Positions 35,053 through 42,258 of a stretch of DNA of 43,589 bases are shown here, one piece after another. This DNA comes from an uncultured Erysipelotrichaceae bacterium. Its GTDB lineage: Bacteria; Bacillota_I; Bacilli_A; Erysipelotrichales; Erysipelotrichaceae. The notes below the pieces were generated by a model that searched no databases, was not told the DNA's origin, and saw only the letters and a list, made by a program, of their open reading frames with translations. Location of the stretch: contig CALVCF010000020.1 of assembly GCA_944325935.1 (NCBI GenBank), positions 1-43,589 on the forward strand, read 5' to 3'. The number at the start of each line of letters is the position of its first letter. Position 1 is the first letter of the stretch. A program made the translations under genes and the position numbers.

Positions 35053-36423
35053 TTAGACTTTCTCAGCCGTCAAGTTTCTGACCCACTTTTCGCGTCTTAG
35101 CATATGGTAAGACAGGCCGGCCTTTAAGACATCGGTCATTTGCCCTAAGACATATAAAAGGATCACATTGAGTCCTGTAAAATAGCTAAGACCTGCTACG
35201 ACTGGGATATTACATGCCCACATAAAACAAGAGTCCATAAAGAGGGTCGACTTAGTATCGCCACCTGCCCTTAAGACAAAGTAGATCGAAGAATTAAAGA
35301 CATACATGACAAAGAAGATCGACATGACTCTTAAGAAACTTGCTGCCAAATGCTGAGCTTCTAGAGAAACATTATATAAGTATGGCGCAAAAAACGAAGT
35401 TCCAAACATCAAAACCAAGAAGACCATCGCGCACATGATCCCAAAGCATACGAGCTTATAGGCGTTGTCTTTGGCTTTCTTAAGATCGTTAGCGCCTAAA
35501 GGCGTTCCCACTAAGACTGTTGTAGCTGTGGCCATACCGGTAAATAAGACAAAGAAGAGATCAGAGATCGTCGATGACATGCTGTAGGCGGTATTGGCGA
35601 CTAAGCCGCGATTGGAATAAGCCCTTAAGAGAGTGGAAATACCTAAGGAATACAAAATATCATTGATGCAAAGCGGTATTGCCTTGATGATGATCTCCTT
35701 AGCCAAGCTAAAACTAAAATGGAAGATCTCTTTAAATCTAGTCTTAAACGCAAAAGCACTGCGGTGTAAAGAAATAAGATATAGCGCTAGTTCAACGATC
35801 CTGGCAATCAAAGTGGCGATCGCTGCCCCTACTTCGGCTAGATAGGGGAAACCGAAATTACCAAAGATCAGGCAATAATTTAAACAAGTATTGGTCAAAA
35901 CCGAAACAACCGAGATCTTTAAGGGCAACTTAGTCTCACCAAGAGCCCTGAAGGCACTGGACACACAAAGCGACAATGCCCCTGGAATATAGGAGAGGCA
36001 AGCGACCTTTAAGTAAGAAGAACCCCTTAAGACGACATTCTCTTCACTTATAAAAAACGCAATAATGTTTGGGGCAAAAAATAAGGCCAAACAAACAAAG
36101 ATCAAGCAGATCGAAAGCGATGACACCAGCATAAATCTAAAAGTCGCTTTCATGCGCTCTTCATCATTAGCGCCATTGAATTGTGACAAATAAATCACGC
36201 CTGAGGCGATCATGCCGTTAATGCCGCTCCAGGCAATCATATAATAGCGATTGGCATTGGCCACTCCGCTTAAGGCGACATCCCCCAATTGGCCTACCAT
36301 TAAATTGTCGACCAAATTGACACTTGAGACCACAAGTTGCTGCAACATCAAAGGCACAGCTATCACTAGGGCCGCCTTGATAAAGTCGTGATCTTTAAGC
36401 ATCATCTTGAAATAAGTAAACAT
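35053..36423 (-). CDS. MATE-family efflux transporter
   Basis: 456 residues with about 12 hydrophobic helices in two halves. MLQQLVVSSVNLVDNLMVGQLG near 25 and PLCINDILYSLGISTLLRAYSN near 242 are typical of the NorM/DinF branch. Exports cationic compounds using Na or H gradients. Convergent with the CDF gene; no obvious terminator between them (34989-35052). Confidence 0.92.
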   Translation of the reverse strand: MFTYFKMMLKDHDFIKAALVIAVPLMLQQLVVSSVNLVDNLMVGQLGDVALSGVANANRYYMIAWSGINGMIASGVIYLSQFNGANDEERMKATFRFMLVSSLSICLIFVCLALFFAPNIIAFFISEENVVLRGSSYLKVACLSYIPGALSLCVSSAFRALGETKLPLKISVVSVLTNTCLNYCLIFGNFGFPYLAEVGAAIATLIARIVELALYLISLHRSAFAFKTRFKEIFHFSFSLAKEIIIKAIPLCINDILYSLGISTLLRAYSNRGLVANTAYSMSSTISDLFFVLFTGMATATTVLVGTPLGANDLKKAKDNAYKLVCFGIMCAMVFLVLMFGTSFFAPYLYNVSLEAQHLAASFLRVMSIFFVMYVFNSSIYFVLRAGGDTKSTLFMDSCFMWACNIPVVAGLSYFTGLNVILLYVLGQMTDVLKAGLSYHMLRREKWVRNLTAEKV

Positions 36424-36469
36424 GAGTATAAAGTAACACTAAATGCGTTTATTATCAAGGATTGGCTGG

Positions 36470-36499
36470 TTGGTCTAATGATAAATATTTTGTTATAAT
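36470..36499 (+). promoter_or_regulatory. Promoter of the leader-ORF transcript
   Basis: TTGGTC (36470-36475), 18-bp spacer, TATAAT (36494-36499). Downstream an ATCGGCC/GGCCGAT stem (36553-36559 with 36577-36583, loop 17) precedes the short ORF. Confidence 0.5.
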
Positions 36500-36596
36500 T
36501 AAAATGTAAAGGAGAAAAAGGATCGATACTGCGCATCAACATTCTAACTATAATCGGCCCTGATCTTTAAATATATGGCCGATAGAAAGGATCATC

Positions 36597-36659
36597 ATGC
36601 AACAATATAATCCACAAAGGTACAAAAACGGAGAAATATCAGCTGCACAAGTCTTTTGA
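36597..36659 (+). CDS. Short leader ORF of 20 codons
   Basis: Encodes a 20-residue peptide beginning MQQYNPQRYKNGE and ending AAQVF. It has a fair RBS (GAAAGGA 7 nt upstream), lies in a transcript with its own promoter, and its last codons (36645-36659) form the left arm and loop of a terminator. This layout fits a leader peptide controlling the downstream lipoprotein gene. No homologue recognised. Confidence 0.45.
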   Translation: MQQYNPQRYKNGEISAAQVF

Positions 36660-36672
36660 TTTGTGCTTTTTT
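36645..36672 (+). terminator. Terminator/attenuator at the end of the leader ORF
   Basis: Stem GCACAA(G) (36645-36651) / (T)TTGTGC (36660-36666) followed by T6. The ORF stop codon TGA (36657-36659) is in the loop, so a ribosome finishing the ORF would cover the left arm. Confidence 0.7.
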
Positions 36673-36722
36673 ATTCTCTTTATCACTATCACCGTTTAAT
36701 ACAAAAGTCAGAAAGGGGAATC

Positions 36723-37838
36723 ATGAAGAAAATTATCTTTATTACCTTGGTTTTAAGCATGATCTTATCGATCGCCGGCTGTCATAGGGTAGAAGATGAT
36801 CCTGCCCCGCCACCGACGATCAACTACAAAATCGAGGATGTCGATCTATACGCCAAGCTTCCAGAAATTGACTCGCAAAAATATGTCTATGATTTCTTAG
36901 AGGTATATCAGGACAAGATGTTTGTCGTGCAATATGAACTTTTAAGAAACAGCTATAATGAAGTTAATGATCTTGAAACAGTTGCGCTTTATCAATACGA
37001 TATCGCCAATGATAAGGTCCAGCCCTACGATTTAACATCTCTTGATTTGGATAACTCTTTTAAAGAGAAACTGCTCAATATAGTCGAGATAAATGATGGC
37101 CTATATTTTTACATCATATCAAAGGCCGATCAAAATTCAGAAAGTCTACAAACACTCTACTATCTTGATAAGGGCGACCGATCAAATGAGATATTCCGTT
37201 CATCCAACTCATCAAAATCCTACACACCACAAGTTGTTATACAGGATGATGAAATATATTTTGTAGTATGCGATACAAACGAAAAAGATAGGGAAGCCGG
37301 AAGAGGCTATGATAAGTTCAGCGATCTCCAAATTATAAAATTAAATGAAGAGGCCCAAACCGAAAACATTTTTATTTCGAAAGAAGATCTTTTTGGTTTT
37401 GCCTTTGAATATTCGTCTCCAATTAGTTTTCTAACGGTCAACGGGGATGATGAGATGACTATCTACGCTTTCGAAGACGATCAAATCCAAGCTTATCCAA
37501 CTGGTGATGACTTTGACGGCTATGATGCCTTTGGAGGTAATATTTACGGCATCCATGACAACTGGGGTCAAGATGATCGCGAATTATACTGGTATGATGT
37601 TAAAAATGATGTCAAATTACCGATGACCAGAAGAGCAGAAGAACATACATCACTAGGTGACTATGTGATCGTTATCGACAATACTGGGACTACCGTCATG
37701 GCAATCAAAGAAGGACAGTTGGTGTCAGTTGATATTGATGAAGGTTTGAAATCACCTCTTTATGCAATAAAGATCGACGATCATTCCGCCTTTATCGCAT
37801 GCACCGACTTCATCTTCAAGAAAATCACTTTTGATTAA
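36723..37838 (+). CDS. Secreted lipoprotein, unknown function
   Basis: 371 residues. Signal peptide MKKIIFITLVLSMILSIAG with lipobox ending at Cys20, then PPP-rich linker. The mature part is acidic and rich in aromatic residues, with repeated strand-like units (DKMFVVQYELL, DGLYFYIISK, DDEIYFVVCD, DQIQAYPTGD, NIYGIHDNW) that suggest a beta-propeller. No family recognised. The start was set at 36723 because it has GAAAGGGG upstream and gives a proper signal peptide. Confidence 0.8.
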   Translation: MKKIIFITLVLSMILSIAGCHRVEDDPAPPPTINYKIEDVDLYAKLPEIDSQKYVYDFLEVYQDKMFVVQYELLRNSYNEVNDLETVALYQYDIANDKVQPYDLTSLDLDNSFKEKLLNIVEINDGLYFYIISKADQNSESLQTLYYLDKGDRSNEIFRSSNSSKSYTPQVVIQDDEIYFVVCDTNEKDREAGRGYDKFSDLQIIKLNEEAQTENIFISKEDLFGFAFEYSSPISFLTVNGDDEMTIYAFEDDQIQAYPTGDDFDGYDAFGGNIYGIHDNWGQDDRELYWYDVKNDVKLPMTRRAEEHTSLGDYVIVIDNTGTTVMAIKEGQLVSVDIDEGLKSPLYAIKIDDHSAFIACTDFIFKKITFD

Positions 37839-37882
37839 TAAAATGAATTAAATATCTATTTGTTTATCTAAAACTTGCGCAC

Positions 37883-37937
37883 AAAAAAGGGGCTGTTGAA
37901 AAAAGTCTAAGTTGATTTAGACTTTTTTCACAGCCCC
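37883..37937. terminator. Long bidirectional terminator
   Basis: Arms GGGGCTGT-TGAAAAAAGTCTA (37889-37909) and TAGACTTTTTTCA-CAGCCCC (37918-37937), nearly perfect over about 20 bp with one bulge, and T6 on the minus-strand side (37883-37888). Serves the GH4 operon on the minus strand and probably the lipoprotein gene on the plus strand. Confidence 0.85.
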
Positions 37938-37950
37938 TTAAATTTACTAT

Positions 37951-39375
37951 TTAGTTTTTAGGTTCTTCCCCTTTTTCTAAAGCCTCGATCGCTTCCTTGA
38001 AATTGGGTAACCACTCTTTTTCAGCTACTAGCAACTCATTTAGGCAGCTCTTTGCCTTGTAATAAGAGTTGATGAGTGGGTTAGCGACAAGCGCTTCTAG
38101 TGCTGCGTGATAGCTACCGCTTACGGCCGCTTCAACAGCGAGTTTTTCGTATTCTTTAGCCGCATAGATCTTCGACATCATATGGCCCGGAAGACGGGGG
38201 AAACAGATAGGATGGATGCCGCTGGCATTGACTAAAGATGTAGTAGTGCAAACACAATGAGGATCAAATTCCTGCATCGAACCCATCGAAGCTACATCAG
38301 GACTAAATACTTCGTTCGTATTGTTCCAAAGGGCATTGATAAGGGAAATGCCAGCTTCCCCATAGCCCTTGCCTCCGCGGGTATTGCAGGCTAACTTATA
38401 GGCACGGGGATCTAGTTTTTCATAAAGCTCAAAGGTACGCTTTTCAATGATCTTGACACATTCTGCCCTTGTACATTGACCCGGGTTTTCTAAATCATCA
38501 CAAACATCGCCCACATGTTTTCTGATCGTATTCATCATCTGCTCCCAATGATTGCCCGAGTAATTTTGCAGATCATTGAAGTTGGTATCATAATCATAAT
38601 AGAACTCAAGATATGGCCCCATTGGAATATATCCGATAAATCTTTCTAAAGCCGGTTCAACGAATTCTCTGCGCAAAGCAGGGATGTGTTCAGCCGACCA
38701 TTCCAATAATCTTTCAAAAGCATCGTCAGTAACATCTTTACCTTTGACAAAGACCTTGCACCATATTAGATGATTGAGTCCGCTGACTTGTACAAAGACA
38801 TCATCTGGGTTTTCTTTCCCATAAATTTGCCGCATAGCATTTCTAATAACAGTAGGCCCATTGCATAGACAGGCATATTTGACCTTAGAGTGTCTTTCCA
38901 AAGCTTCACCTATCATGCCCGAAGGATTAGCTAAATTGATCAAATAGCAATCTGGTTTGGCCACTTCTTCGATCGCATGAGCGATCTCTAGCATTGCTGG
39001 GATCGTCTTTAGACCCATGACCATCCCGCCGGGTGCTGTCGTCTCTTGTCCGATCAACCCATGTTTAAAGGGAATAGTCTCATCCATGTTGCGGCCATCA
39101 GACATGCCCGGACGAATCGTCGTTATGACGAAATCGCAATCCTTAACAGCCTCTTTCAGATCAGTTGTAAGAGTGATCTTGGTTTCCATACCTGCGTCTT
39201 CAAACATCTTCATGACGTATTTGCCAGTACAATTAAGGCGATATTCATCAATATCCATAAGACGCCATTCACTGACCTTCATCGTATTCTTTCTTTCGAT
39301 CAACATCTCCGCGATGTCAGGCAAATAAGAAGAGCCAGAACCAATATTAGCTAAGATCATTTTGTTTTCGTTCAT
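37951..39375 (-). CDS. GH4 6-phospho-beta-glucosidase (NAD and Mn dependent)
   Basis: 474 residues. N-terminal NAD-binding NIGSGSSYLPDIAEMLIER, then CLCNGPTVIRNAM (metal Cys171, Asn172) and VSGLNHLIW (His202), the GH4 metal site. The CNxP form is that of beta-acting 6-phosphoglucosidases, unlike CHSV, CHEV or CDMP of alpha-acting relatives; here x is Gly rather than Val or Ala. Cleaves phosphorylated beta-glucosides delivered by the neighbouring PTS. Last gene of the operon; 12 nt after EIIBC. Confidence 0.9.
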   Translation of the reverse strand: MNENKMILANIGSGSSYLPDIAEMLIERKNTMKVSEWRLMDIDEYRLNCTGKYVMKMFEDAGMETKITLTTDLKEAVKDCDFVITTIRPGMSDGRNMDETIPFKHGLIGQETTAPGGMVMGLKTIPAMLEIAHAIEEVAKPDCYLINLANPSGMIGEALERHSKVKYACLCNGPTVIRNAMRQIYGKENPDDVFVQVSGLNHLIWCKVFVKGKDVTDDAFERLLEWSAEHIPALRREFVEPALERFIGYIPMGPYLEFYYDYDTNFNDLQNYSGNHWEQMMNTIRKHVGDVCDDLENPGQCTRAECVKIIEKRTFELYEKLDPRAYKLACNTRGGKGYGEAGISLINALWNNTNEVFSPDVASMGSMQEFDPHCVCTTTSLVNASGIHPICFPRLPGHMMSKIYAAKEYEKLAVEAAVSGSYHAALEALVANPLINSYYKAKSCLNELLVAEKEWLPNFKEAIEALEKGEEPKN

Positions 39376-39387
39376 TTAAAATACCTC

Positions 39388-40782
39388 CTACTTTTCATCT
39401 TTGTATACAACGAAACTCAAAGCTGCTGTAACGATCAGGGCGACCCCAGCTGCAATACAACCAATCATGAAGTTATTGGAATTACCACCGACATAACCCA
39501 AGACTGACAGGATATTACTGGGGCCGAATTGGTAGTAACCGACATTAAAGATACCCAAGATCAAACCAGCCAGCCCGCCGCCGATCATTGCAGGAACATA
39601 TAATTTCTTATTTGGCAAGAATAGACCAAACCAAGTCGGTTCTGAAACCCCTCCTAAAGCAACTGATGCTAGACAAGTGAGACCGAGTTCACGGTTTTTG
39701 CCGATCTTTGTTTTAAGAGTATAGCCAAACGAAACACCCATAGCAATAAAGTTTGTAATGACCATAGCGATCGGCATATAGGCATATTCAACTCCATTGG
39801 CAAATAACATCGTCATACAGATGAAGAATACTGGCCTTCCAATGCCAAAGGCAGTCATAAATGGCACGAACATGCCCACCAACATGAGTTCGATCGGTCC
39901 GGCAACTTGATTGAGCCATAAAATAGCTTGTGCTAATAAATCACCAACTAATGTTCCTAATGGGCCTAGAGCACATAGGGCGATCGGCAACATGATCAAA
40001 GTTATCAAAAGCGGTTCTAAAACGACTTTTAAGACATCAGGCACTATCTTCTTGACTAACTTTTCGATATATTTTTGGGCCCAGACGATCAATAAAATCG
40101 GAATGACCGAGGTGCTATAAGTAGCAGCAGTCGCTGGAATGCCATAGACCGTATAGGTAACGCCTTCTGTCGACATCAACGTAACTAAATTAGGATATAA
40201 AAGGATAGCTGCCATGACAATCGAGACAAAGACATTGGTCTTAAAGTGTCTGGCTGCAGTCACTGCTAAAAAGAAGGGCAGGAAATATAGGATCGCTTGT
40301 GAAGTGAAATAGAAGTTGTTGTAGATATCGCTTTGATCAGAAACTAGATTCAAGAAACTTGGCCCGATCAATACGGCGATCAAGTTGGTCATACCGACAA
40401 GCACAAACATCGGTACGAGCGGATTCATCGTAGCAGAGAAGGTATTAATGATGTTGTCGAAGATCGCCTTGGGTGAAAATCCGCTCTTATTTAAATCTTC
40501 ATCAAGGTTTTCATTGATCGCTTCGGTTCTTTCAAGACCAGTCATACGAATAACTTCGTTATACACTTCATCAACGGCAGGGCCTATGATGATCTGTATT
40601 TCTCCACGGTCGACATTAATACCTAAAACGCCGTCTGTTTTTTCGACTTCATCAAGTTTGGCAATGCCTTGATCTTTCAAGTTAAGACGAAGTCTTGTCA
40701 TACAATGGAAAACATTACTGATGTTTTCTTTGCCACCGATAAGATCAATGATCGTTTCGGCTAACTTAGTGTGTTTACTCAT
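39388..40782 (-). CDS. PTS beta-glucoside-type EIIBC
   Basis: 464 residues. N-terminal IIB (about 1-85) with NVFHCMTRLRLNLKD, phosphorylated Cys27; then IIC (about 110-460) with ten or so helices, including GRPVFFICMTMLFA near 310 and GVSEPTWFGLFLPNKK near 382. No fused IIA, which is supplied by the separate gene at 41720. RBS GGAGAAAG. Preceded by its own antitermination site. Confidence 0.93.
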   Translation of the reverse strand: MSKHTKLAETIIDLIGGKENISNVFHCMTRLRLNLKDQGIAKLDEVEKTDGVLGINVDRGEIQIIIGPAVDEVYNEVIRMTGLERTEAINENLDEDLNKSGFSPKAIFDNIINTFSATMNPLVPMFVLVGMTNLIAVLIGPSFLNLVSDQSDIYNNFYFTSQAILYFLPFFLAVTAARHFKTNVFVSIVMAAILLYPNLVTLMSTEGVTYTVYGIPATAATYSTSVIPILLIVWAQKYIEKLVKKIVPDVLKVVLEPLLITLIMLPIALCALGPLGTLVGDLLAQAILWLNQVAGPIELMLVGMFVPFMTAFGIGRPVFFICMTMLFANGVEYAYMPIAMVITNFIAMGVSFGYTLKTKIGKNRELGLTCLASVALGGVSEPTWFGLFLPNKKLYVPAMIGGGLAGLILGIFNVGYYQFGPSNILSVLGYVGGNSNNFMIGCIAAGVALIVTAALSFVVYKDEK

Positions 40783-40842
40783 CTTCTTTCTCCTTGTCTT
40801 TTATGAGCCTGAGGTTTCTATATTGGCCACTATATACTCCCT

Positions 40843-40889
40843 CAAAACAAAACCTCGCATAAAAAGTAGCTAGCTTTCTATGGCGAGGT
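40843..40889 (-). terminator. Intercistronic terminator between licT and EIIBC
   Basis: Minus-strand arms ACCTCGC (40883-40889) / GCGAGGT (40852-40858), continued by inner pairing, then TTTTGTTTT (40843-40851). Its 5-prime arm overlaps the RAT at 40886-40912, so LicT binding would block it. Confidence 0.75.
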
Positions 40890-40912
40890 CATGCCCTATT
40901 GGTAACAGTCCT
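40886..40912 (-). promoter_or_regulatory. RAT 2 (LicT antiterminator site) overlapping the licT stop codon
   Basis: Minus strand GGACTGTTAC, 6 nt, GGCATGACC. It shares GACTGTTAC and GGCATGAC with RAT 1 and with the known LicT/SacT consensus, but its middle part is 4 nt shorter than in RAT 1. The licT stop codon (40896-40898) lies within it. Confidence 0.7.
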
Positions 40913-41723
40913 CTTTGGAACAAACTCGATTGATATGGATCATCAGGTAGAGTTGTTCCTCTTCACTGATTTCGTAATTTAATTTCTTTTGGAAATAATC
41001 ATCGATCGCTACTACGCATTCATATGCCCTAGGATAGCGATTTTTAATGGATTCAAACATCTTTTCATTATCACTTGAGATGGGATGTTTTTTATCCATG
41101 CGCGAAAGTAGATATTGGATATGAGTCGCAAAACGATAATAGTTGAAATTATTGCGATCAAAGTTGATATCCATTTTTTCTTGTACGATCTTCGTTATAT
41201 CTTCGATCACAACTGTGTTGACTTTATTTGCGGGTTTGTGTTTTTCAGCATCTAGGATATGCAAAGCTAAGATCGGTATCTCGCTTTTGGGCAGCTTTAC
41301 ATTCAGTTTTTTCTCGATATATTCCTTGGCCTTTTGGGCTATATCAAACTCCTTGGGATGTAAGAACTTGATCTCATAGTCAAGGCCGTAATTCATCTCG
41401 ATCCCTTCTTTTAGGCGTTTGATCGTAAAATTGATATGATCAGCTAATGTGAAGGAGAGATTGGGATTTAATTTTTTTCCTAACTTGTTTTGTGCAAACA
41501 AGACGATCTTATGAGCGCACAAGAGAATGTCATCAGCGATCGTTTTGATCAGACCGTAATACTTTTCGTCGATATTGTAGTAAGTCTCTTCAATTTTGGA
41601 TAGATCGGTGAGCTCTACAGGAAATTTCCCAAAGCCGATGCCCGATCCTCTAACGATCACCATTTCATTCTTGCTGTCGATAGCCAAGGCGTAGTTGTTG
41701 TTTATCTTTTTAATAAGTTTCAT
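40896..41723 (-). CDS. licT: LicT/BglG-family RNA-binding transcriptional antiterminator
   Basis: 275 residues. CAT RNA-binding domain (about 1-55, KKINNNYALAIDSKNEMVIVRGSGIGFGK), then PRD1 (about 65-165, DHINFTIKRLKEG with His) and PRD2 (about 170-275, ATHIQYLLSRM and MIHINRV with His). Binds RAT hairpins in its own operon, freed by substrate through dephosphorylation by the EII. Overlaps the EIIA gene by 4 nt (ATGA). Confidence 0.95.
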   Translation of the reverse strand: MKLIKKINNNYALAIDSKNEMVIVRGSGIGFGKFPVELTDLSKIEETYYNIDEKYYGLIKTIADDILLCAHKIVLFAQNKLGKKLNPNLSFTLADHINFTIKRLKEGIEMNYGLDYEIKFLHPKEFDIAQKAKEYIEKKLNVKLPKSEIPILALHILDAEKHKPANKVNTVVIEDITKIVQEKMDINFDRNNFNYYRFATHIQYLLSRMDKKHPISSDNEKMFESIKNRYPRAYECVVAIDDYFQKKLNYEISEEEQLYLMIHINRVCSKEDCYQ

Positions 41724-42190
41724 ACACTCATCCTGATGATCACGTTTTCATTTGTAACTATTTCATGCAGTTTCATTTTTGCATATTCACTTTTATCTTC
41801 CATCATAATGACGATGATTGGAATCTTGATATCTTGGCTTTTGATATAGTCCATATCAAACTCGATGAGGGGCTGTCCCTTTTTGATCCTGTCTCCGATC
41901 TTGATGTTAGAAGCTAGGCCCTTGCCCTGTAACTTTACCGTATCAAGACCAACATGGATCATGATCTGTTTGTTGTTGCGCATCTTGATCATTACCGCAT
42001 GTTTGGTTGGAAATAGACCGACAACCTTACCATCGCAAGGGGCTAAGACGACATTATCTTCCGGTTCGATATAAAAGCCATCACCCATCATCTTAGAGGA
42101 AAACACCTTATCTTCACACTCGCTTATATCAAAGCACCTTCCCTTAATTGGCGCATATATATCATTTTTAGCTTTTAATAATTCAAACAT
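41720..42190 (-). CDS. PTS glucose/beta-glucoside-type EIIA
   Basis: 156 residues from the ATG at 42190 (GGAGGA 7 nt upstream); a longer frame to 42247 would run through the RAT/terminator and is unlikely. VVLAPCDGKVVGLFPTKHAVMIK near 48 and MIHVGLDTVKLQGKG near 77 hold the active-site His64 and His79. Donates phosphate to the EIIBC encoded downstream. First gene of the operon. Confidence 0.92.
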   Translation of the reverse strand: MFELLKAKNDIYAPIKGRCFDISECEDKVFSSKMMGDGFYIEPEDNVVLAPCDGKVVGLFPTKHAVMIKMRNNKQIMIHVGLDTVKLQGKGLASNIKIGDRIKKGQPLIEFDMDYIKSQDIKIPIIVIMMEDKSEYAKMKLHEIVTNENVIIRMSV

Positions 42191-42203
42191 AAGATCTATT
42201 CCT

Positions 42204-42258
42204 CCAAAATAAAACATCCACAAGCAACAACCAAATTCATTAGTCATGCCTCGGATGT
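42204..42258 (-). terminator. Leader terminator upstream of the EIIA gene
   Basis: Minus-strand arms ACATCC (42253-42258) and GGATGT (42214-42219), with inner AGGC/GCTT pairing, then TTTATTTT. The 5-prime arm lies inside RAT 1. Classical leader attenuator of bgl/lic operons. Confidence 0.6.

What the first reader, a model, noticed from the sequence alone, without database searches (positions are those of the whole stretch)
36470..36722. Leader peptide with a terminator formed by its own last codons, upstream of a lipoprotein gene
Seen: promoter, a 20-codon ORF with RBS, a hairpin whose left arm is the end of that ORF and whose loop holds the stop codon, U6, and then 50 nt later a lipoprotein gene. 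Inference: a ribosome reaching the stop codon would mask the left arm and let transcription continue, so translation of the peptide would switch on the lipoprotein gene. Alternatively the segment is an independent small RNA of about 165 nt.
Basis: partly seen in the sequence, partly recalled or inferred. Interest (0 to 1): 0.58.

Follow-up and report, generated by a model that had tools for sequence, protein, structure and literature searches.

The report
Conserved leader peptide before exported-protein genes
A tiny protein-coding stretch with a built-in transcription stop signal turns out to be one copy of a repeated, conserved "leader peptide" that sits in front of many unrelated exported-protein genes in one family of bacteria, probably as a translation-sensing on/off control.

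Summary
In detail: ORF 36597-36659 (MQQYNPQRYKNGEISAAQVF*), hairpin 36645-36666 made from its last codons with the stop codon at its apex, U6, and a lipoprotein gene at 36723. It is not a one-off. The same 12-residue start (M-L-x-Y-N-P-x-R-Y-K-N-G) occurs 7 times in this genome, up to 15 times in a relative, in all 9 genomes of the genus (one weakly), and in at least six further genera of the family (Erysipelotrichaceae by record titles). The peptide is conserved by codon, not by DNA. A hairpin is enriched directly after the Gly codon, often as a terminator, and recurs in another genus. The next gene is on the same strand in 38 of 46 cases and looks exported or membrane-bound in 30 of 38, against 11 of 38 upstream neighbours; those genes are mostly unrelated. 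Best reading: a cis-acting leader ORF whose translation sets read-through into an exported-protein gene. 22 of 49 copies show no stable hairpin, so the terminator is not universal.

The parts
36470..36499 (+). putative promoter: weak -35 TTGGTC and extended -10 TGtTATAAT
   Evidence: sequence; not among the consensus hits, so weak; transcription start about 36506 inferred
36506..36596 (+). 5' untranslated stretch with an ATCGGCC/GGCCGAT inverted repeat before the SD site of the leader ORF
   Evidence: sequence; fold of 36506-36672 z -1.7; not seen in other family members, most of which have short 5' UTRs by reading
36597..36659 (+). leader ORF, MQQYNPQRYKNGEISAAQVF*, member of the RYKNG leader family; conserved part is codons 1-12 (36597-36632)
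   Evidence: paralogue found by DNA similarity alone; 47 members tabulated by codon; model R1 finds it at E 1.4e-18 (it was one of the sequences the model was built from)
36645..36666 (+). terminator-like hairpin GCACAAGTC-UUUU-GAUUUGUGC; left arm made of the last codons of the leader, stop codon at the apex/3' arm
   Evidence: z -2.9; similar hairpins in L002, L093 and L083
36667..36672 (+). U6 run after the hairpin
   Evidence: sequence
36723..37838 (+). downstream gene: 371-aa predicted lipoprotein, no Pfam or NCBIfam match, found only in this genome of the genus
   Evidence: lipobox LSIAGC read from sequence

Best explanation
This is a cis-acting leader ORF of a repeated family ('RYKNG leaders'). 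A copy typically has its own promoter, a short ORF starting M-L-x-Y-N-P-x-R-Y-K-N-G, in many copies a hairpin (sometimes a U-tailed intrinsic terminator) placed across the ORF's end, and some 50-200 nt later a gene for an exported or small membrane protein. Most likely the ribosome translating the leader decides whether RNA polymerase passes the hairpin: a ribosome that runs to the stop codon covers the left arm and lets transcription reach the exported-protein gene, while a ribosome that is absent or halted earlier on the conserved RYKNG codons leaves the hairpin free to terminate. Shown here: the family, the coding conservation, the hairpin at the ORF end, the link to exported-protein genes. 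Inferred: that the peptide acts in cis through the ribosome, the sign of control, and that some signal alters translation at the conserved motif.
For: Seven copies in the own genome, 15 in G002 and at least one in each of 9 genus genomes at E<=0.01 (the one in G006 is weak, E 0.0027, and reads MNIYNLSRYKNED). Codon pattern: third positions vary (majority 0.58 against 0.87 and 0.90 for positions 1 and 2; Arg8 written with five codons from both CGN and AGR) in 47 members; this is partly built in by the search patterns, but the first paralogue, found by DNA similarity only, differs from the window copy in the PQRYKNG codons only at synonymous third positions. A start codon in the fixed place was not part of the patterns. 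Hairpin enrichment: mean z -1.21 (20 of 47 below -1.5) in the 45 nt from the Gly codon, against -0.15, -0.17 and +0.23 in three control stretches; terminator-like 14 of 47 against 3.65 expected from shuffles. Terminator left arm at or before +5 of the stop in 15 of 16 leaders with a terminator against 14 of 50 ordinary genes. Downstream gene same strand 38 of 46, exported-like 30 of 38, against upstream neighbours 21 of 38 same strand and 11 of 38 exported-like, and 10 of 39 window ORFs. In all 27 of 49 leaders with a stable hairpin a ribosome at the stop would cover the start of the left arm. Precedents: Pil1 (PMC3894217, passages) and tlrB (PMC6851288, passages).
Against: Only 14 of 47 copies have a terminator by a strict scan and 27 of 49 any stable hairpin near the ORF end, and most copies of genus g44 have none, so termination control cannot be the whole family's mechanism. 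Members are not independent: many are recent duplicates (G002). The hairpin is only slightly better anchored to the Gly codon than to the stop (left-arm sd 6.6 against 7.1 nt; right end 6.4 against 8.2), and the 27-of-27 statement is helped by the search range used. Terminators in the first 100 bp of a coding region work normally in E. coli (PMC4824070). No expression data exist here. Six of 46 leaders are followed by an opposite-strand ORF, two by none within 300 nt, and one (L013) precedes a protein that reads as methionyl-tRNA synthetase (name recalled, not searched), not an exported protein.
Confidence: 0.5

Rival explanations
1. The leader is a ribosome-arrest peptide: R8-Y9-K10 (an R/K-X-R/K motif) or the following N11-G12 halts the ribosome in response to a tunnel-binding drug or another signal, as the RYR motif of the tlrB leader does with tylosin. 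Control of the downstream gene follows from the halted ribosome.
For: Lys or Arg at 10 after Arg8 in 44 of 47; nearly fixed distance from the start codon, so the nascent chain is usually about 9-12 residues, like MIIQFIRYR of tlrB (PMC6851288); conservation stops abruptly after Gly12 while tail and stop position vary.
Against: Residue 10 is Gly or Thr in three copies. The patterns used ask for Lys and Arg, so the count is biased. A ribosome halted at the motif would reach only to about +12 nt from the Gly codon and leave the window's hairpin (+15 to +37) untouched, so a drug would switch the gene off, the opposite of tlrB. The downstream genes are not resistance genes.
Confidence: 0.3
2. The short ORF is a stand-alone small-peptide gene (for example an intracellular or exported signal) that happens to be transcribed with, or just upstream of, the exported-protein gene; the hairpin is its ordinary terminator.
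For: The peptide sequence is what is conserved; some copies have no terminator or no co-directional gene.
Against: Up to 15 copies in one genome, most before a different exported-protein gene, is hard to explain for a diffusible product; the terminator lies across the end of the ORF in 15 of 16 cases against 14 of 50 ordinary genes; no signal sequence by reading; one copy (L132) is fused in frame to a lipoprotein.
Confidence: 0.2
3. Independent small RNA of about 165 nt from 36506 to 36672.
For: Promoter-like and terminator-like ends.
Against: The 5' untranslated half is not shared by other copies; what is conserved is the codons of the peptide. No Rfam family.
Confidence: 0.08
4. A duplicated DNA module (promoter plus start of a gene) spread by recombination in front of exported-protein genes, with the peptide a non-functional relic.
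For: In G002 the stretch around the leader is duplicated almost unchanged; contigs end next to copies in G004; one copy is an in-frame fusion with a lipoprotein.
Against: Across genera the peptide is kept while the DNA, the spacer, the tail and the downstream genes all differ; synonymous drift with amino-acid constancy is not expected of a relic.
Confidence: 0.1

Closest known systems
Pil1 leader-peptide attenuator of Streptococcus gallolyticus (PMC3894217; abstract and passages seen)
   Same: Short ORF with SD, an intrinsic terminator downstream, then a surface-protein operon; when the leader's stop codon falls within or beyond the hairpin, translation prevents termination and switches the operon on. 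The window copy has its stop in that place.
   Different: Pil1 uses GCAGA repeats that change the leader's length (phase variation); here there are no repeats, the peptide sequence is conserved, and the family heads many unrelated genes.
tlrB (yxjB) leader of Bacillus subtilis, MIIQFIRYR (PMC6851288; abstract and passages seen)
   Same: 9-residue leader ending in R-Y-R at nearly the same distance from the start codon, with a terminator downstream in a Gram-positive organism.
   Different: The tlrB peptide ends at RYR and controls a macrolide-resistance methyltransferase; here N-G follows, the window's hairpin lies beyond a ribosome halted at RYK, and the genes are exported proteins.
Single-operon leader peptides of attenuators in general (trp, pyrBI, mgtC, speF; some in the listings, otherwise recalled)
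   Same: Cis-acting translated leader with a conditional terminator.
   Different: Those serve one operon each and sense a metabolite or ion; here one conserved peptide without repeated codons is reused up to 15 times per genome.

Membership tests
Leader-peptide transcription attenuator (uORF attenuator) | short translated ORF upstream, co-directional, of a main gene | tested here: met
   38 of 46 same strand within 300 nt; coding conservation. Translation itself not observed.
Leader-peptide transcription attenuator (uORF attenuator) | intrinsic terminator between leader and main gene, within reach of the ribosome | tested here: inconclusive
   met for the window copy and 13 others of 47; not found in the rest
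Leader-peptide transcription attenuator (uORF attenuator) | read-through depends on translation of the leader | not testable with these tools
   needs reporter fusions or RNA-seq
Pil1-type attenuator | tandem repeats in the leader ORF that change its length | tested here: not met
   no repeat in the 63-nt ORF by reading; tails differ between copies but N-terminal length is nearly fixed
Macrolide-arrest leader (R/K-X-R/K) | R/K-X-R/K motif near the start of a short leader | tested here: met
   44 of 47 members, with search bias towards it
Macrolide-arrest leader (R/K-X-R/K) | controls a resistance gene or ribosome-protecting factor | tested here: not met
   downstream products examined are exported proteins without families, some followed by ABC transporter ATPases
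Macrolide-arrest leader (R/K-X-R/K) | drug-dependent ribosome arrest | not testable with these tools
   needs toeprinting
Known Rfam riboswitch or leader | match at gathering score | tested here: not met
   0 matches in the window

The most novel reading that the evidence does not exclude
A new nascent-peptide control system: one conserved peptide motif (YNPxRYKNG, about 8-12 codons from the start) is read by the ribosome as a sensor and is reused as a common header for a regulon of up to about 15 unrelated exported-protein operons per genome, so that one translational signal sets the cell's secreted and surface output. It would be confined to one bacterial family and unlike known leaders, which each serve one operon.
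Probability: 0.3. Interest if true: 0.78.

Novelty: new variant of a known kind. Interest (0 to 1): 0.6.

Why it matters
If right, it is a leader-peptide regulon rather than a leader of one gene: a single conserved 12-residue peptide, repeated across a genome, would tie expression of many exported proteins (several in bacteriocin-like settings with small membrane proteins and ABC ATPases) to what the ribosome senses while making it. The motif gives an immediate test by toeprinting, and a sequence handle to find and name a set of exported proteins with no known family.

Tried and rejected
Rfam scan of the window: nothing. DNA hits L004, L005 and L006 were read and taken as chance matches, with no such ORF. 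Pattern hits that are not short ORFs were dropped from the member list: L025, L052, L054, L066, L072, and hits without a start within 60 nt or with an ORF over 45 codons; identical 90-nt cores were counted once, which merged L013 with L017 and repeated fetches. L065, L078, L079 and L080 were also left out as not convincing. The member set for statistics is 47 (45 plus L083 and L084); L093 and L094 were added only for (49), and copies found by the model afterwards (L102, L108, L112, L117, L124-L134) are in no statistic.

Programmed frameshifting from the leader into the main gene was considered (AAA AAC) and rejected, because Lys and Asn codons vary freely. A promoter inside the ORF (TATAAT at 36606) was rejected: it is the Tyr-Asn codons and other copies write them TACAAT, TATGAT or TATAAC. 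The palindrome TGTAAAkGCTTACA as a common operator was not pursued because it is seen mainly in G002 copies. A long-range helix between the hairpin loop and a downstream stretch in the G002-type copies has some support: 9-pair helix 87.7% paired with 3 pairs changed on both sides, but the whole two-helix structure does not stand out in every control (covariation score reached by 55 of 500 shuffles), and the local hairpin scores 88.3%; I did not find it convincingly in the window copy. Pair counting over the window-like hairpins (alignment) was not done because the alignment shifts one row; compensatory changes there (GCACAAG/CTTGTGC, GCACGGG/CCCGTGC, ACACATAT/ATATGTGT) are read by eye. Searches of viral contigs, phages and plasmids found nothing. 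Literature: no paper of the held library holds 'RYKNG'; the listings gave no description of this family; small-protein catalogues (for example PMC11364881, search listing only) may hold the peptides unnamed, which I did not check.

Outside the family, model R1 gave four matches with E from 4.7e-4 to 9.5e-4 in 392 sampled genomes; I take these as chance and did not read them.

Full report
WHAT IS THERE. ATG 36597, twenty codons MQQYNPQRYKNGEISAAQVF, TGA 36657-36659; hairpin 36645-36666 and U6; lipoprotein ATG at 36723. A consensus scan finds the terminator (2 terminator-like sites against 0.9 expected in 36300-37950) and several promoter-like sites (9 against 5.9), so sequence alone is weak evidence. 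The RNA 36506-36672 folds only moderately better than shuffles (z -1.7). There is no Rfam match and no tRNA in the window. The lipoprotein has no Pfam or NCBIfam family and is found in 1 of 9 genomes of the genus, its own.

A FAMILY. A DNA search of the own genome returned a second place on another contig, 79% identical over 66 nt, covering most of the ORF and the hairpin. Its ORF is MLRYDPQRYKNGDVL*. Within PQRYKNG the two copies differ at CCA/CCT, AGG/AGA, TAC/TAT, AAA/AAG and AAC/AAT: all synonymous. A degenerate pattern for the motif matched 4 of 195 genomes of the family, all in this genus, with 15 places and none for the reversed control; looser patterns reached 7 of 9 genus genomes (3 control hits), 12 of 294 order genomes (1 control hit) and 12 of 70 genomes of genus g44 with two mismatches (several of these being chance hits, 5 control hits). 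A sequence-only model R1 built from 15 copies found matches at E<=0.01 in 43 of 272 family genomes: 7 in the own genome, 15 in G002, and at least one in all 9 genus genomes. Its weaker matches are a mixture; the ones I read as real leaders lie in genera g44, g69, g30, g59, g70 and g54. In a sample of 392 genomes of the phylum (all labelled same class or nearer) the pattern gave 10 genomes, of which the only one outside the family is not a leader, and R1 gave 16, four of them outside the family with E near 0.0005-0.001. One contig labelled Peptostreptococcaceae carries a clear copy, L024; it may be mis-binned. Record titles name the nearest genomes as uncultured Erysipelotrichaceae.

THE PEPTIDE IS WHAT IS CONSERVED. 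In 47 members, position by position: M 43 (others have GTG or an upstream start), L or I at 2 in 41, Y4 41, N5 33, P6 41, R8 47, Y9 44, K10 40 (R 4, G 2, T 1), N11 47, G12 47. R, N and G are fixed partly because the patterns ask for them; copies found by the model show that N11-G12 can change (L128 NS, L130 NE, L133 SG). Majority fraction by codon position is 0.87, 0.90 and 0.58, again partly a search effect, but the start codon nine bases before Tyr4 was not asked for, and the paralogue was found without any codon rule. After Gly12 the tail is 0 to 23 residues and variable.

THE HAIRPIN. In the 45 nt beginning at the Gly12 codon, folding is better than shuffles (mean z -1.21, 20 of 47 below -1.5); the next two 45-nt stretches and one upstream stretch give -0.15, -0.17 and +0.23 with 5 of 47, 7 of 46 and 3 of 47. 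A strict terminator rule is met by 14 of 47 against 3.65 expected. In leaders the left arm begins at or before +5 from the stop in 15 of 16, in ordinary genes of the window and fetched loci in 14 of 50. These copies are not independent; by eye they form about six groups. Genus g69 copies L083 and L093 carry almost the window's terminator (AAGCACGAGTTTTTAACTTGTGCTTTTTT; GCACAAGTCTTTTAACTTGGTTGTGCTTTTTT) after MLKHSPQRYKNGV* and MLKYNLHRYKNGDLI*, and G004 has GCACGGG/CCCGTGC with pairs changed on both sides. So peptide and hairpin travel together across genera, although most copies of genus g44, several in g1, and those in g30, g59, g70 and g54 that I read lack a clear terminator.

THE DOWNSTREAM GENES. 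Of 46 members with at least 300 nt downstream, the first ORF is on the same strand in 38, opposite in 6, absent in 2; 30 of the 38 have a strongly hydrophobic stretch near the start, against 11 of 38 upstream neighbours and 10 of 39 window ORFs of 100 aa or more (simple hydropathy rule, not a signal-peptide predictor). They are lipoproteins, secreted proteins and small membrane proteins by reading, and of those scanned nearly all match no family. Several are followed by ABC ATPases whose best or near-best NCBIfam match is L_ocin_972_ABC, but at 108-110 bits against a cut-off of 254.85, so not members. The same leader before unrelated genes, and the absence of the window lipoprotein from the other 8 genus genomes, show that leader and gene are separable. 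In one G002 copy (L132) the leader codons are fused in frame to a lipoprotein: MLNCGPSRYKNGILPWQKNILSFCKVILSLLMILSITGC....

HOW IT PROBABLY WORKS. With a ribosome taken to reach about 15 nt beyond the first base of its P-site codon (toeprint distance of 15-16 nt, as used in PMC6851288), a ribosome at the stop codon covers the start of the left arm in all 27 of 49 leaders that have a stable hairpin, while a ribosome with Asn11 in the P site stops short of the left arm in 12 of 27, including the window copy. So a ribosome that completes the leader would oppose termination, and one that never starts or halts on the motif would not, at least in the window type. Pil1 of S. gallolyticus is a proven case in which a leader whose stop lies within the terminator turns the operon on and loss of the leader's start codon turns it down (PMC3894217). 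Terminators a few bases after a stop codon are almost fully repressed in E. coli, but those within the first 100 bp of a coding region are not, unless transcription pausing couples the two (PMC4824070); tlrB in Bacillus needs such a pause (PMC6851288). The RYK motif recalls the RYR arrest motif of tlrB, MIIQFIRYR, but the geometry would make arrest in the window copy switch the gene off. I therefore hold translation-dependent read-through as most likely, with sign and signal open.

NOVELTY. Leader-peptide attenuation is well known. A conserved peptide reused as a header before many unrelated exported-protein genes in one genome is not something I found described. I call it a new variant of a known kind.

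Noticed in passing
L132 (G002:C42), complement of 413-1009: A leader-like start MLNCGPSRYKNGI is fused in frame to a lipoprotein signal sequence, so the motif can also be the N-terminus of the exported protein itself.
   Followed up: partly
promoters of L003, L012, L016, L020, L042, L043, L044, L045, L046, L047 (all G002): A palindrome TGTAAAkGCTTACA overlaps the -35 region in 10 of the 12 G002 leaders printed, which suggests a shared DNA-binding regulator in that species.
   Followed up: no
L016, L021, L041 (G002, G000) downstream genes: Small secreted or membrane protein followed by an ABC ATPase resembling (below cut-off) the lactococcin 972 export group: bacteriocin-like settings.
   Followed up: partly
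L010 (G007:C29), 371 and 1492: Two leader copies about 1.1 kb apart, each with its own following genes.
   Followed up: no
L013 and L017 (G004:C44, C47): Identical leader ORFs lie at the ends of two contigs, one of them before a gene that reads like methionyl-tRNA synthetase; repeats of the leader may break assemblies.
   Followed up: no
window 37884-37942: Strong inverted repeat AAGGGGCTGTTGAAAAAAGTCTAA...TTAGACTTTTTTCACAGCCCCTT between the lipoprotein and the convergent family-4 glycosidase gene, probably a two-way terminator.
   Followed up: no
window 37951-42247: PTS operon on the minus strand (GH4 glycosidase, EIIBC, PRD/CAT-RBD antiterminator, EIIA), which includes a classical RNA-binding antiterminator gene.
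   Followed up: no
L024 (JAUNKE010000112.1): A clear leader (MNYYNPQRYKNGDTI) with a long hairpin and a following exported-protein gene on a contig labelled Peptostreptococcaceae: horizontal transfer or mis-binning.
   Followed up: no
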